Positions 324-8,315 of a stretch of DNA of 20,754 nt are shown here, piece after piece (the stretch's first letter is position 1; each line of letters starts with the position of its first letter). The notes under the pieces were generated by a model. That model was not told the DNA's origin, made no database searches, and saw only the letters and a list, made by a program, of their open reading frames with translations. Source of the stretch: a virus; the IMG/VR virus record IMGVR_UViG_3300047323_000188, positions 1 to 20,754 of that record. One strand, given 5' to 3'. The position numbers and the translations under genes are program-made.

Positions 324-866
324 TCACTTCGGTGTTGAGACTTCTTTGGCATAGGCCTGACAGGCCGCCAACGCGATCAATCCTTGGTCGCCGGCATCGG
401 TGATGCCGATAATTCGTTGAGCATGCGTCGGGTCAAGTTGGGCTCTTGTGGCGCCATGAACCACGCCGCCGGTTGGGGTGGCGGCTGACACTGTGCGGCT
501 ACTGTCTGCAGCGGTGGCGTCGAGTAGGACTGACAGGCGCAGATCAGCAGTGGCAAGACGGTCGCGCAGGCGACCTTGATCACGTTGGACATCGCTCAGA
601 GCTCGGTAATGGGTTTGTTCACTGACTGAAAGCCGCTGCTCCAAAGCCAGACGTTTGGCCTGCTCGGCTTGTTGCTGCGCGACAGCGGCCAGTGTCAGTT
701 GATTGAGTGTTTCAGTCTGCAGGCGGGCTTGTTGCTCAAGCTGCCGGCCGTAGCGCCAGTCCTGAACCTGCCAAGCAGCCATGGCGGAACCTCCGGCCAA
801 TATGGCCAGCAGCACGCCGATGCCCAGCAGCCGATACGGTGCCGGGATCAGGTCGAAGAGACGCAT
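324..866 (-). CDS. Rz: Rz-type inner-membrane spanin (i-spanin)
   Basis: This is a 180-aa protein from the ATG at 866 (MRLFDLIPAP). A single N-terminal membrane segment lies at about residues 12-31. A long Gln/Ala/Arg-rich helical, probably coiled-coil, periplasmic region follows to about residue 110, then a variable C-terminus. This is the Rz/i-spanin architecture: it links the inner membrane to the outer-membrane lipoprotein Rz1 and fuses the two membranes at lysis. I chose the start at 866 because GAGGG lies about 7 nt upstream; an in-frame ATG at 890 lacks a comparable site. The start overlaps the end of the endolysin gene by 19 nt. Rz1 is encoded inside it in another frame, which strongly supports the call. 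Confidence 0.85.
   Translation of the reverse strand: MRLFDLIPAPYRLLGIGVLLAILAGGSAMAAWQVQDWRYGRQLEQQARLQTETLNQLTLAAVAQQQAEQAKRLALEQRLSVSEQTHYRALSDVQRDQGRLRDRLATADLRLSVLLDATAADSSRTVSAATPTGGVVHGATRAQLDPTHAQRIIGITDAGDQGLIALAACQAYAKEVSTPK
377..592 (-). CDS. Rz1: Rz1-type outer-membrane lipoprotein spanin (o-spanin), embedded in Rz
   Basis: This 71-aa product lies entirely inside Rz in a different frame, as in lambda. It has a short positively charged N-terminus, a hydrophobic stretch and a lipobox-like LLICAC, predicting signal peptidase II cleavage before Cys20. The mature part is proline-rich (PPLQ, PPPQP), as in known o-spanins. It would be anchored in the inner leaflet of the outer membrane and pair with the Rz C-terminus. 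A second Cys at position 18 in the lipobox is unusual but tolerable. The ribosome site is weak (GAGCG just upstream), which fits low or coupled expression. Genuine by architecture rather than by sequence identity. Confidence 0.85.
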   Translation of the reverse strand: MSNVIKVACATVLPLLICACQSYSTPPLQTVAAQCQPPPQPAAWFMAPQEPNLTRRMLNELSASPMPATKD

Positions 867-1411
867 AGCACCGCCCTCGCCCGCTCCCACAAGTGCAGCC
901 GATCCGCCAGGCCATTAAGGCCGCCGTTGATCTTGCGGGTAATCGCCTCGAATTCATCCCGATCCGCCAAGGCGTTCAGTTCGCGTACCCACCAGAACCA
1001 CGAGGCCGACTCGGCAGCCCATTGCGGCAGCTCGAGCAGCTCCGGGGTGCGCTGCAATCGTTCGTCGCCGAACAGCGCCAGGCTGCAGCGCAGATAATTG
1101 TTGCGGCCGGTGATCTGAATCAGACCCCGACCGCGATAGCGCTGGCCATCACCGTCCGGCTCTGGTGTATTGCCCAGCTTGGCGGCCAGATTACCGGTGT
1201 CGTACTTGCTCAGGTATTGGTCGCCGCCCAGTTCCCGGACGTACTGCAGTTGGCCAGACTCGTGCCCGACTTGGGCGAGGAACGCCGCCTGGCGCTTCGG
1301 CGTGTTGATCTGCCAGTGGGCCATCGCCGCGTTGAGGACAGAAACAAAAACGCCCGCTTGGCGGCGGGCGTTGGGCATGATGAGTTGCAGCTGTTTATCG
1401 GTTAAGGACAT
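848..1411 (-). CDS. Phage endolysin, GH19 chitinase-like lysozyme
   Basis: A 187-aa protein from the ATG at 1411 (MSLTDKQLQL), with GGAG 6 nt upstream. An in-frame ATG at 1426 sits inside the upstream hairpin/ribosome-site element and is rejected. The family signature is clear: FLAQVGHESGQ with the catalytic Glu51, then YRGRGLIQITGRNNY at about residues 92-106. GH19 endolysins of phages cleave the beta-1,4 bond of peptidoglycan between MurNAc and GlcNAc. There is no signal peptide or SAR anchor at the N-terminus, so it should be cytoplasmic and need a holin to reach the wall; no holin is visible here. It follows tail gene D and overlaps Rz, the same order as I recall for the R-pyocin lysis genes. 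Confidence 0.9.
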   Translation of the reverse strand: MSLTDKQLQLIMPNARRQAGVFVSVLNAAMAHWQINTPKRQAAFLAQVGHESGQLQYVRELGGDQYLSKYDTGNLAAKLGNTPEPDGDGQRYRGRGLIQITGRNNYLRCSLALFGDERLQRTPELLELPQWAAESASWFWWVRELNALADRDEFEAITRKINGGLNGLADRLHLWERARAVLCVSST

Positions 1412-6196: not shown

Positions 6197-6292
6197 TCAA
6201 TCCGTGAGCCACCAAACCATCTCTGAAAAGGGCATGGCCGTAATCTCGGCAGCAGAGAAACCGGTCTCTTTCGCCAAGCGCTGGGCCGCCAT
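6197..6292 (-). CDS. GpE'-like tail assembly chaperone extension (probably reached by frameshift from E)
   Basis: A short frame, 31 codons from an internal ATG, reads MAAQRLAKETGFSAAEITAM and ends in SEMVWWLTD. The pattern (helix, MPFSEM, tryptophans) resembles the small P2 GpE' family. There is no ribosome site before the ATG. It lies just after the E stop at 6309 and before the tape measure, where long-tailed phages make the second chaperone form by programmed frameshifting. The frame is +1 (equivalently -2) relative to E and stays open back to about 6365. A shift near 6335-6341 would give a product of about 140 aa, near the roughly 142 aa I recall for P2 E+E'. The separate start is a placeholder. 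Confidence 0.62.
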   Translation of the reverse strand: MAAQRLAKETGFSAAEITAMPFSEMVWWLTD

Positions 6293-6308
6293 TTTGAGGG
6301 TGGTTGCG

Positions 6309-6620
6309 TTAAACGTCGTCTTCTTCGACCAGGCGAAAATAGCCCGCCGATAGGCGCTGATAGTCCTTGTATTTCAGGCTCAACAATTCCGCCTCGGTGA
6401 GCCCCAGCAAGCTGCTGAACAGCGACAATTCCTGTTTTTCATAGTCGCCATTGCCCGCCACCTTGGAGGCACGCCAATCCATGACGCTGGGCGCACGCAT
6501 CATCAGCTTGTCGGTCAGGACACCGCTGATCAGGGTCTTGTATTTGAGCGTTACGGTCACGCCCTCATCGCTCAGCTTCAGCCAGCTCGGCAGCTCTTGG
6601 TCTTGGGTTACTTGAGTCAT
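6309..6620 (-). CDS. E: Tail assembly chaperone, P2 gpE-like
   Basis: A 103-aa protein (P2 gpE is about 91 aa). It has the family's beta-rich start (LSDEGVTVTLKYKTLISGV) and then an acidic helical second half: MDWRASKVAGNGDYEKQ, LFSSLLGLTEAELLSLKYKDYQRL. GpE-type proteins coat the tape measure with the longer frameshifted form while the tube polymerises. It starts at the ATG at 6620 with AAGGAC upstream, 12 nt after the tube gene stop, and is followed by the E' extension in another frame. Confidence 0.8.
   Translation of the reverse strand: MTQVTQDQELPSWLKLSDEGVTVTLKYKTLISGVLTDKLMMRAPSVMDWRASKVAGNGDYEKQELSLFSSLLGLTEAELLSLKYKDYQRLSAGYFRLVEEDDV
6335..6341 (-). promoter_or_regulatory. Possible programmed frameshift site joining E to E'
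   Basis: In the E frame the minus strand reads TAT TTT C. A +1 slip of the phenylalanine tRNA from TTT to TTC would enter the E' frame with good re-pairing. This is the best candidate I see between the last upstream stop of the E' frame (near 6366) and the E stop at 6309. No classical -1 heptamer (X XXY YYZ) fits. The exact site is a guess; a -2 slip or a slip at GTT TAA is also possible. Confidence 0.25.
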
Positions 6621-6632
6621 GTGCTTTTGTCC

Positions 6633-7136
6633 TTAGAGGCCGAGGGCCGAGCGTTCGGCGGCAGCTTGGTCGACACCGTCGACCACCATCACCATGTTGA
6701 GCGGGTCGATCTCGTACATGACCCGGCCGTCGATCTCCAGCTTGTAGTAGACCAGCTTGATCGCGTGCTTGATTTCAGCCTTGTCGGCTGGTTTCCAGTC
6801 GCCCATGTCGACCTCTTTGATGCCGCCGCGCATGGTCACAATGACCGGCGTGACCACGCCCCGCAGGCCCTTGAAGGCACCGCGAAACACGATGTTGCAG
6901 GCGGTCTGATCGGCCAGGCCGAAGTACTTCAGCGCCTCGCGGCGCACGCCGTTGGTGGTAAACGCCGCTTCCAGCTTTTCCAGGCCCATGGCGATTTCGA
7001 CCGGCGACAACATGCCGCCGCCCTGATAGTCGTCGGTCTTTTGGGTCAGCTTAGGCAGCGACAGGGTCGGCACGTCGCCGGCAAAACTGATGCCGTCGAC
7101 GAACGCATTACAGTTGGAGAGAACTTGAGGAATCAT
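6633..7136 (-). CDS. FII: Major tail tube protein, P2 FII family
   Basis: This 167-aa protein is close to P2 FII (172 aa) and the R-pyocin tube (about 168 aa). It starts MIPQVLSNCNAFVDGISFAG and contains the family's YQGGGMLSPVEIAMGLEKLEA segment, the FRGAFKGLRGVVTPVIVTMRG strand pair, and a C-terminal DPLNMVMVVDGVDQ. Hexameric rings of it stack to form the inner tube that the sheath drives through the envelope. It starts at 7136 after a GGGGG ribosome site, 12 nt after the sheath stop. Confidence 0.93.
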   Translation of the reverse strand: MIPQVLSNCNAFVDGISFAGDVPTLSLPKLTQKTDDYQGGGMLSPVEIAMGLEKLEAAFTTNGVRREALKYFGLADQTACNIVFRGAFKGLRGVVTPVIVTMRGGIKEVDMGDWKPADKAEIKHAIKLVYYKLEIDGRVMYEIDPLNMVMVVDGVDQAAAERSALGL

Positions 7137-7148
7137 CGAACGGCCCCC

Positions 7149-8315
7149 TTAGGCTGCTTCAAGAACTTCGGTCGCCCATTGATCGGTGACTTCGAAGAGG
7201 AAATTCGGGTTTTCCGCCGGCGGCACGTCGGTGAAGCGGATGCGCCAGTAGACTTTGCCCTGCATGATTTGGCTGGCCGTGCTCATTTCGTCGTCCGCGT
7301 AGACTTCGAAATTGATCACCGCGCCCCGGTTTTTCTCGTCGCGCATGAACGCCTGAAGGCCTTCGGTCACGTCCTTGACGTAGGTCTTGGTGATCGAGCG
7401 GTCGACCGCCCACTTGTGCCCGGCCTGCACCGCATCCATGAGGATGTCGCAAGTTCGCACCCGGGTGATGAACGCCCATTTCGGATCGCTGGACAGCGTG
7501 CGGTTGCCCCACAAACGGAAACCGCCGTCACGAATGATCGTGGTGATGTTCGCGTTGTTGAGCAGGTTGGCCCGGCAGGTGGCGTCGCCGTCCAGGTACT
7601 CGACCGGGCGGCTCGTGCCGGTGATACCGACAAACTCCTTGTTCGATGGCGACGCCCAGTAGCCGTACTCGGCATCGGTCCAGGCAAACAGACCTGCCGT
7701 CCACGCCGAGCCCGGTGCATCGACCGTCGCGCTCTCGATCGTGTCCCAGAACTGCACACCCGGATCGACCAGAAACAGGCGCTTACTGCCGAAGTTCAAG
7801 GCGTAGGCCATGGCGGCCTCATCGGTGGTATTCGGTCCGTCGATGATGGCGATCGCGCGCAACTTGCCGGCCAGGGCATCCATGGCGGTGGCCACCGCCT
7901 GCGTCGCCGAATGCCCCGGGGCAATCAACAGTTTTGGCTGGGCGTTGTGCTTGCTCTTGCCGTCCAGCAACGCCTGAAGACCGGTACGCTGGCCATCGGC
8001 AAGAACGCCACCAATGATGGCGGACGTTTGCAGCGCAGCATCCTCGAGCTTGGGCACGCCGACAGCGACGATCACCGCCTTGGCCCGCACGTAAATCGCG
8101 GCCGCCGCCTTGGCGATGGCCGACCCCGCGCCGAACGCCGCGATGGCTTCGCGCTCGGAGGTGATCAGCTTCAGCTCGCCGGCCTTGGCCGTACCGCCGC
8201 CGAGGATGCCCGGGGTGAAGGTGTCGCACAGACCGATGATCGACGATGACGGCAGCGAAATGGTCCGCGCCCCGGTGTCGAGCAGCGTGGTCGTAACGCC
8301 GTGAAAGAAACTCAT
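7149..8315 (-). CDS. FI: Contractile tail sheath protein, P2 FI family
   Basis: A 388-aa protein (P2 FI about 396 aa; R-pyocin sheath about 386 aa). It starts MSFFHGVTTTLLDTGARTIS, the usual sheath N-terminus, and continues with SSIIGLCDTFTPG. The middle has AIAIIDGPNTTDEAAMAYAL. The conserved C-terminal half has RLWGNRTLSSDPKWAFITRV, then DMLxAV-like DILMDAVQAG, and YWRIRFTDVPPAENPNFLFE. The subunits wrap the tube and contract on triggering. It is preceded by TGGAGA as ribosome site within a hairpin-bearing 103-nt gap, the largest intergenic gap in the structural region, which fits separate tuning of this high-copy protein. Confidence 0.95.
   Translation of the reverse strand: MSFFHGVTTTLLDTGARTISLPSSSIIGLCDTFTPGILGGGTAKAGELKLITSEREAIAAFGAGSAIAKAAAAIYVRAKAVIVAVGVPKLEDAALQTSAIIGGVLADGQRTGLQALLDGKSKHNAQPKLLIAPGHSATQAVATAMDALAGKLRAIAIIDGPNTTDEAAMAYALNFGSKRLFLVDPGVQFWDTIESATVDAPGSAWTAGLFAWTDAEYGYWASPSNKEFVGITGTSRPVEYLDGDATCRANLLNNANITTIIRDGGFRLWGNRTLSSDPKWAFITRVRTCDILMDAVQAGHKWAVDRSITKTYVKDVTEGLQAFMRDEKNRGAVINFEVYADDEMSTASQIMQGKVYWRIRFTDVPPAENPNFLFEVTDQWATEVLEAA

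What the first reader, a model, noticed from the sequence alone, without database searches (positions are those of the whole stretch)
6197..6341. Tail chaperone E/E' overlap appears to need a +1 or -2 frameshift, not the usual -1
The E frame stops at 6309. The GpE'-like frame (MPFSEMVWWLTD end, stop at 6197) is +1/-2 to it, has no ribosome site, and is open upstream to about 6365, so a shift could fuse the two. P2 and lambda use -1 shifts and Mu is reported to use -2. A TAT TTT C at 6335-6341 could allow a +1 slip; the fused product would be about 140 aa.
Basis: partly seen in the sequence, partly recalled or inferred. Interest (0 to 1): 0.6.

Follow-up and report, generated by a model that had tools for sequence, protein, structure and literature searches.

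The report
+1 frameshift in phage tail chaperone
A Pseudomonas phage appears to make the long form of its tail-building helper protein by having the ribosome skip one base forward at a fixed codon (UUU_C), where its closest relatives slip one base back instead; the same forward site is also present in a related bacterial killing device, an R-type pyocin.

Summary
E (6620-6309, minus strand) and E' (ends 6197) are in the +1/-2 relation with a ~60-nt overlap. In the overlap one codon can re-pair one base forward (TTT_C, 6338-6335) and none two bases back, so +1 is favoured over -2. In 190 distinct related loci (E identity down to ~40%), nearly all from Pseudomonas where the host is known, including one headless R-type pyocin cluster, TTT_CG[C/T] is present in 190/190. 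On their tree this Phe codon has 0 synonymous changes; another Phe codon 27 codons upstream has at least 30. The preceding Tyr is TAT in 172/189, against 29/185 at a nearby Tyr. The +1 frame is constrained only from TTT onward, and E' has no conserved start codon. E' is homologous to the C-terminal segment of related chaperones that use -1 sites at the same position. On a protein tree the +1 group is one clade (96/95) among -1 relatives, so direction probably changed once. No Shine-Dalgarno or adjacent-hairpin stimulator was found. +1 shifts in tail chaperones are reported elsewhere, so this is a new variant, not a new kind. Product and efficiency are untested.

The parts
6309..6620 (-). E: short tail assembly chaperone (103 aa), zero-frame product
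   Evidence: Pfam PF10109 Phage_TAC_7, 40.6 bits over cut-off 25; PHROG 166 'tail protein'; between tube and tape measure genes; best PDB fold hit is HK97 tail assembly chaperone 2OB9, weak
6333..6341 (-). Slip site TAT_TTT_CGC: E-site UAU (6341-6339), P-site UUU (6338-6336) re-pairing to UUC (6337-6335), zero-frame A-site codon CGC (6335-6333)
   Evidence: TTT_CGY in 190/190 distinct loci; 0 synonymous changes at the Phe codon on the tree; only +1 re-pairing site in the overlap, no -2 site
6197..6334 (-). E' (T-like) C-terminal segment read after the +1 shift: AWSKKTTFN...ETGFSAAEITAMPFSEMVWWLTD, 45 aa plus TGA
   Evidence: 45 aa in 183 of 190 distinct loci; hhalign to E' of -1 relatives P=95%, to P2 GpE-like E' P=91%
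6197..6620 (-). Predicted E-E' trans-frame chaperone, 140 aa
   Evidence: Translation with TTTC read as one Phe step
6312..6373 (-). Overlap in which both frames are open
6247..6276 (-). Possible RNA hairpin inside E', 62-91 nt downstream of the slip codon (too far to act directly on the slipping ribosome); tentative
   Evidence: Local fold z about -2.5 at +30..+130; 82% of cells paired, covariation above shuffles but many unpaired cells
6633..7136 (-). Tail tube FII, upstream neighbour
   Evidence: PF04985, 8.8e-57
7149..8315 (-). Tail sheath FI
   Evidence: PF04984/PF17482
3637..6159 (-). Tape measure protein, downstream neighbour
   Evidence: PF10145, 2e-26

Best explanation
This is a programmed +1 ribosomal frameshift that yields two forms of the tail assembly chaperone. 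Most ribosomes translate E and stop at 6309. A minority, with tRNA-Phe (GAA) on UUU (6338-6336), UAU in the E site and CGC waiting in the A site, slip one base forward onto UUC, where the same tRNA pairs better, and continue in the +1 frame to make the 140-aa E-E' protein. By analogy with lambda gpG/gpGT, E binds the tape measure and the E' part of E-E' recruits tail tube subunits. Shown: frames, invariance of the site, absence of a -2 route, homology of E' to other chaperone C-termini, one +1 clade among -1 relatives. Inferred: that slippage happens, its efficiency, and the tail-assembly role.
For: Frames. E' frame conserved in relatives while the -1 frame is not. TTT_CGC/CGT in 190/190 loci. 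On a tree of total length 23.8 substitutions/site the slip Phe has 0 synonymous changes, the other conserved Phe at least 30, and the other conserved degenerate codons 3-48. TTT in 54/54 representatives at 80% and 27/27 at 70% E identity, while the other Phe is about half TTC. The boundary is sharp: the wobble bases of Tyr -1, Gly -2 and Ala -3, which are second bases in the +1 frame, change 12, 28 and 33 times, so the +1 frame is not constrained upstream of TTT. Only +1 re-pairing site in the window; no -2 site in the window or in 156 of 190 loci. E' homology. -1 to +1 switch: one clade, 96/95, with heptamer-type -1 sites in the nearest relatives. Literature: UUU_Ynn is especially +1 prone in bacteria (PMC5009743); influenza PA-X shifts +1 at UCC_UUU_CGU (PMC3498833).
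Against: No protein or reporter data. In-frame TTT_CGN also occurs at seven other places in window genes (for example 6887 in the tube gene, 12182, 14950), so the motif alone cannot give a high shift rate. No selected Shine-Dalgarno-like stimulator and no structure next to the site were found. CGC and CGT are the commonest Arg codons in these genes, so the A-site codon is not rare. The third base of TTT is also a second base of a +1-frame codon, so part of its constancy would follow from dual coding if the E' frame were read there.
Confidence: 0.93

Rival explanations
1. A -2 ribosomal frameshift, as reported for phage Mu, fuses E to E'.
For: Gives the same net frame; Mu gp41 is named in the same Pfam family description and has a GGGGG run (CGG_GGG_C) that allows -2 re-pairing (-2 in Mu reported in PMC5009743).
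Against: No codon in the window's overlap can re-pair 2 nt back with its first two bases; 156 of 190 loci lack any such site and no position is shared by the rest. The -2 neighbour of the invariant TTT is ATT (or ACT).
Confidence: 0.03
2. E' is a separate small gene started inside the overlap region (for example at ATG 6292).
For: ATG at 6292 in the window gives about 31 aa in frame.
Against: That ATG is in 25 of 183 loci; no start codon is conserved in the first 30 E' codons, 24 loci have no ATG/GTG/TTG there, and E' residues are conserved from the slip site on, upstream of 6292. It would not explain the frozen TTT.
Confidence: 0.02
3. RNA polymerase slippage on the T run, not the ribosome, changes the frame.
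For: The site is a T-rich stretch, TATTTTCG.
Against: The run is only 4 T, and 3 T in the 17 loci with TAC_TTT; known transcriptional slippage needs longer runs (own knowledge).
Confidence: 0.01
4. No recoding: E' is a decaying remnant and the overlap is incidental.
For: No experimental product is known.
Against: E' length and frame conserved in 183 of 190 loci, invariant W, F and A residues with mostly synonymous variation at conserved positions, homology to C-terminal segments of other chaperones.
Confidence: 0.01

Closest known systems
P2 E/E+E' (and Burkholderia P2-like KS5, KS14, KL3)
   Same: Same gene order (sheath, tube, E, E', tape measure), a short and a C-terminally extended chaperone; E' here aligns with GpE-like E'.
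   Different: P2 uses -1 at TTTTTTG (PMC3091744); here +1 at UUU_C.
Phage Mu gp41 tail assembly chaperone (-2 shift)
   Same: Contractile tail, same Pfam family description, same net frame (+1/-2).
   Different: Mu shifts -2, consistent with its GGGGG run; here no -2 site exists.
Lambda gpG/gpGT
   Same: Short and frameshifted long chaperone, the long one in the minority.
   Different: -1 shift; no sequence relation was tested here.
Influenza A PA-X +1 site UCC_UUU_CGU; bacterial UUU_Ynn sites (argI, YopN-TyeA)
   Same: UUU_C P-site slip onto UUC, with CGU/CGC next as in PA-X.
   Different: Different genes and organisms; E-site codon here is UAU.
prfB (RF2) +1 frameshift CUU_UGA
   Same: +1 in bacteria; E. 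coli prfB also has UAU in the E site (own knowledge).
   Different: prfB uses a stop codon and a Shine-Dalgarno stimulator; neither is found here.
PPpW-3 (Hiroshimavirus) and relatives L259-L263, L268
   Same: Nearest relatives in the tree; homologous E and E'.
   Different: E' is in the -1 frame: G_GGT_TTC in PPpW-3 and L260-L262, other sequences in L263 and L268.

Membership tests
Phage tail assembly chaperone (PF10109, E/41/14) | E matches the family profile over its cut-off | tested here: met
   40.6 bits, cut-off 25
Phage tail assembly chaperone (PF10109, E/41/14) | Gene lies between tail tube and tape measure genes | tested here: met
   Tube PF04985 upstream, tape measure PF10145 downstream
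Phage tail assembly chaperone (PF10109, E/41/14) | Known chaperone fold (HK97-type) | tested here: inconclusive
   Best PDB hit is HK97 chaperone 2OB9 but E=0.29, TM 0.45
Programmed-frameshift chaperone pair (G/GT type) | Conserved second frame with a segment homologous to known C-terminal extensions | tested here: met
Programmed-frameshift chaperone pair (G/GT type) | Slip codon conserved beyond coding need | tested here: met
   0 versus 30 synonymous changes
Programmed-frameshift chaperone pair (G/GT type) | Both proteins detected at a set ratio | not testable with these tools
   Needs mass spectrometry or reporters
-1 shift of the P2/lambda type | E' in the -1 frame with a slippery heptamer | tested here: not met
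   E' is in the +1 frame
-2 shift of the Mu type | Codon that can re-pair 2 nt back in the overlap | tested here: not met
   None in the window
UUU_C +1 sites (PA-X-like, bacterial UUU_Ynn) | UUU_C with the +1 frame open after it | tested here: met
   190/190 loci have the site
UUU_C +1 sites (PA-X-like, bacterial UUU_Ynn) | Slippage shown at the site | not testable with these tools
   Needs an experiment

The most novel reading that the evidence does not exclude
A whole clade of Pseudomonas contractile tails, including an R-type pyocin, sets its chaperone ratio by a stop-codon-free +1 shift at UAU_UUU_CGY that replaced an ancestral -1 shift once at the homologous position; it is a natural bacterial counterpart of the PA-X site, with the E-site codon as a main stimulator.
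Probability: 0.65. Interest if true: 0.6.

Novelty: new variant of a known kind. Interest (0 to 1): 0.5.

Why it matters
Two-form tail chaperones are usually made by -1 shifts, with Mu the known -2 case. Here related chaperones divide cleanly into a -1 grade and a +1 clade, so one can ask how a programmed shift changes direction while keeping the same kind of product. It also offers a deeply conserved bacterial UUU_C site for studying +1 slippage without a stop codon, and it means that at least one R-type pyocin cluster encodes a chaperone segment missing from its deposited annotation.

Tried and rejected
-2 shift: no re-pairing site. -1 shift: frame not conserved. Independent start of E': no conserved start codon. 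Shine-Dalgarno stimulator: hybrid energy at prfB-like spacing equals that of synonymous shuffles. Adjacent downstream structure: z about -0.2 at +4..+64. Pfam has no significant family for E' alone. Relatives by taxonomy could not be drawn for a virus record until a genome handle was obtained. L101 was checked as a possible tailocin and looks like a prophage tail region, so no claim is made about tailocins outside P. aeruginosa. Xu et al. 2004 and Fu and Parker 1994 are not held. Literature searches found no report of a frameshift in R-pyocin chaperones, within an open-access library only.

Full report
What is there. On the minus strand the window has the order sheath (8315-7149), tube (7136-6633), E (6620-6309), E', tape measure (6159-3637), identified by Pfam. 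The window is an IMG/VR record with lambda-like head genes and a P2-like tail. E' ends at 6197 in the frame that is +1/-2 to E; both frames are open from 6373 to 6312.

The slip site. A search for codons in the overlap whose tRNA could re-pair after a shift finds one +1 site, TTT_C at 6338-6335, and no -2 site. tRNA-Phe (GAA) on UUU would move onto UUC. The zero-frame A-site codon is CGC and the E-site codon UAU. Reading TTTC as one step gives a 140-aa protein.

Conservation. Two viral-contig scans, one genome scan and one phage record gave 241 loci, 190 of them distinct. TTT_CGC occurs in 149 and TTT_CGT in 41, with no exception. On a tree built from the codons upstream of the site, the slip Phe shows no synonymous change, while the other conserved Phe (27 codons upstream) shows at least 30 and the other conserved degenerate codons 3 to 48. 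Clustering at 80% and 70% E identity leaves 54 and 27 representatives, all TTT. Some search patterns contained the peptide YFR, so Phe-Arg itself is partly ascertained, but TTT versus TTC is not. The wobble bases of the three codons before TTT vary freely, so constraint on the +1 frame starts at TTT. The E-site Tyr is TAT in 172 of 189 loci, whereas a Tyr seven codons further upstream is TAT in 29 of 185; this suggests, but does not show, a role for the E-site codon. After the site the E' frame runs 45 codons in 183 loci and 48 in two (the R-type pyocin record L082 and L144). Of the five shorter ones, three end at contig ends, one (L160, a Zoogloeaceae MAG) has an in-frame stop and one (L147) an altered frame.

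What E' is. E' of the +1 group aligns with E' of relatives that use -1 (hhalign probability 95%, pairwise E 2.6e-8) and with P2 GpE-like E' (91%, 8.8e-7). No start codon within E' is conserved.

Direction switch. The nearest relatives, PPpW-3 (L083/L259), L260-L263 and L268, have E' in the -1 frame; PPpW-3 and L260-L262 carry G_GGT_TTC close to the position of TAT_TTT_CGC. Most of the more distant PF10109 genes sampled also have E' in the -1 frame with G_GTT_TTT-type runs. In a protein tree of 35 sequences the 19 +1 members form one group (support 96/95) inside the -1 members. Mu, on a very long branch, fits a -2 shift at its GGGGG run. A single change from -1 to +1 is the simplest reading; rooting is by midpoint only.

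R-type pyocin. GenBank OQ658366.1, filed as a Pseudomonas phage from P. aeruginosa PACL, has tail, fibre and holin genes but no annotated head or terminase genes; I read it as an R-type pyocin cluster. Its E has TAC_TTT_CGC and a +1 E' of 48 aa that is not annotated.

Stimulators. None was found: Shine-Dalgarno-like pairing equals the synonymous expectation, and the 60 nt after the site are not unusually folded. A weakly supported hairpin lies 62-91 nt downstream, too far to act on the slipping ribosome. Seven other in-frame TTT_CGN sites in the window's genes show that the motif alone is not special; none of them has TAT before it.

Against the literature. -1, -2 and +1 shifts are all reported among tailed phages, with +1 called very likely for the archaeal virus HSTV-2 (PMC5009743), and forward shifts are annotated in part of the SEA-PHAGES set (PMC10885494). 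UUU_Ynn is described as especially prone to +1 in bacteria (PMC5009743), and PA-X uses UCC_UUU_CGU (PMC3498833). I found no paper on this clade or on a pyocin chaperone frameshift, but the library is open-access only and Xu et al. 2004 could not be read. Hence 'new variant of a known kind'. That the shift happens, and how often, remains to be measured.

Noticed in passing
window 6247-6276 (-): Possible RNA hairpin inside E' with some two-sided changes across 61 loci, but about half of the sequences do not pair at two of its nine pairs; role unknown.
   Followed up: partly
window 6339-6341 (-) and homologous Tyr codon in 189 loci: Strong TAT preference in the codon before the slip codon (172/189), against TAC elsewhere, suggesting an E-site codon effect.
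   Followed up: partly
L082 / L271 (OQ658366.1): What looks like a headless R-type pyocin cluster is deposited as 'Pseudomonas phage sp., complete genome'; the E' segment is not annotated.
   Followed up: partly
L160, 2001-2400: Zoogloeaceae MAG locus with TGT_TTT_CGC and a recognisable +1 E' interrupted by an in-frame TGA: a decayed copy or a sequence error.
   Followed up: no
window 1915, 2503, 4752, 6887, 11921, 12182, 14950 (-): Other in-frame TTT_CGN codon pairs in late genes; background +1 slippage might be expected there.
   Followed up: no
window 324-890 and 377-592 (-): Overlapping ORFs at the lysis end that look like an i-spanin/o-spanin (Rz/Rz1) pair.
   Followed up: no
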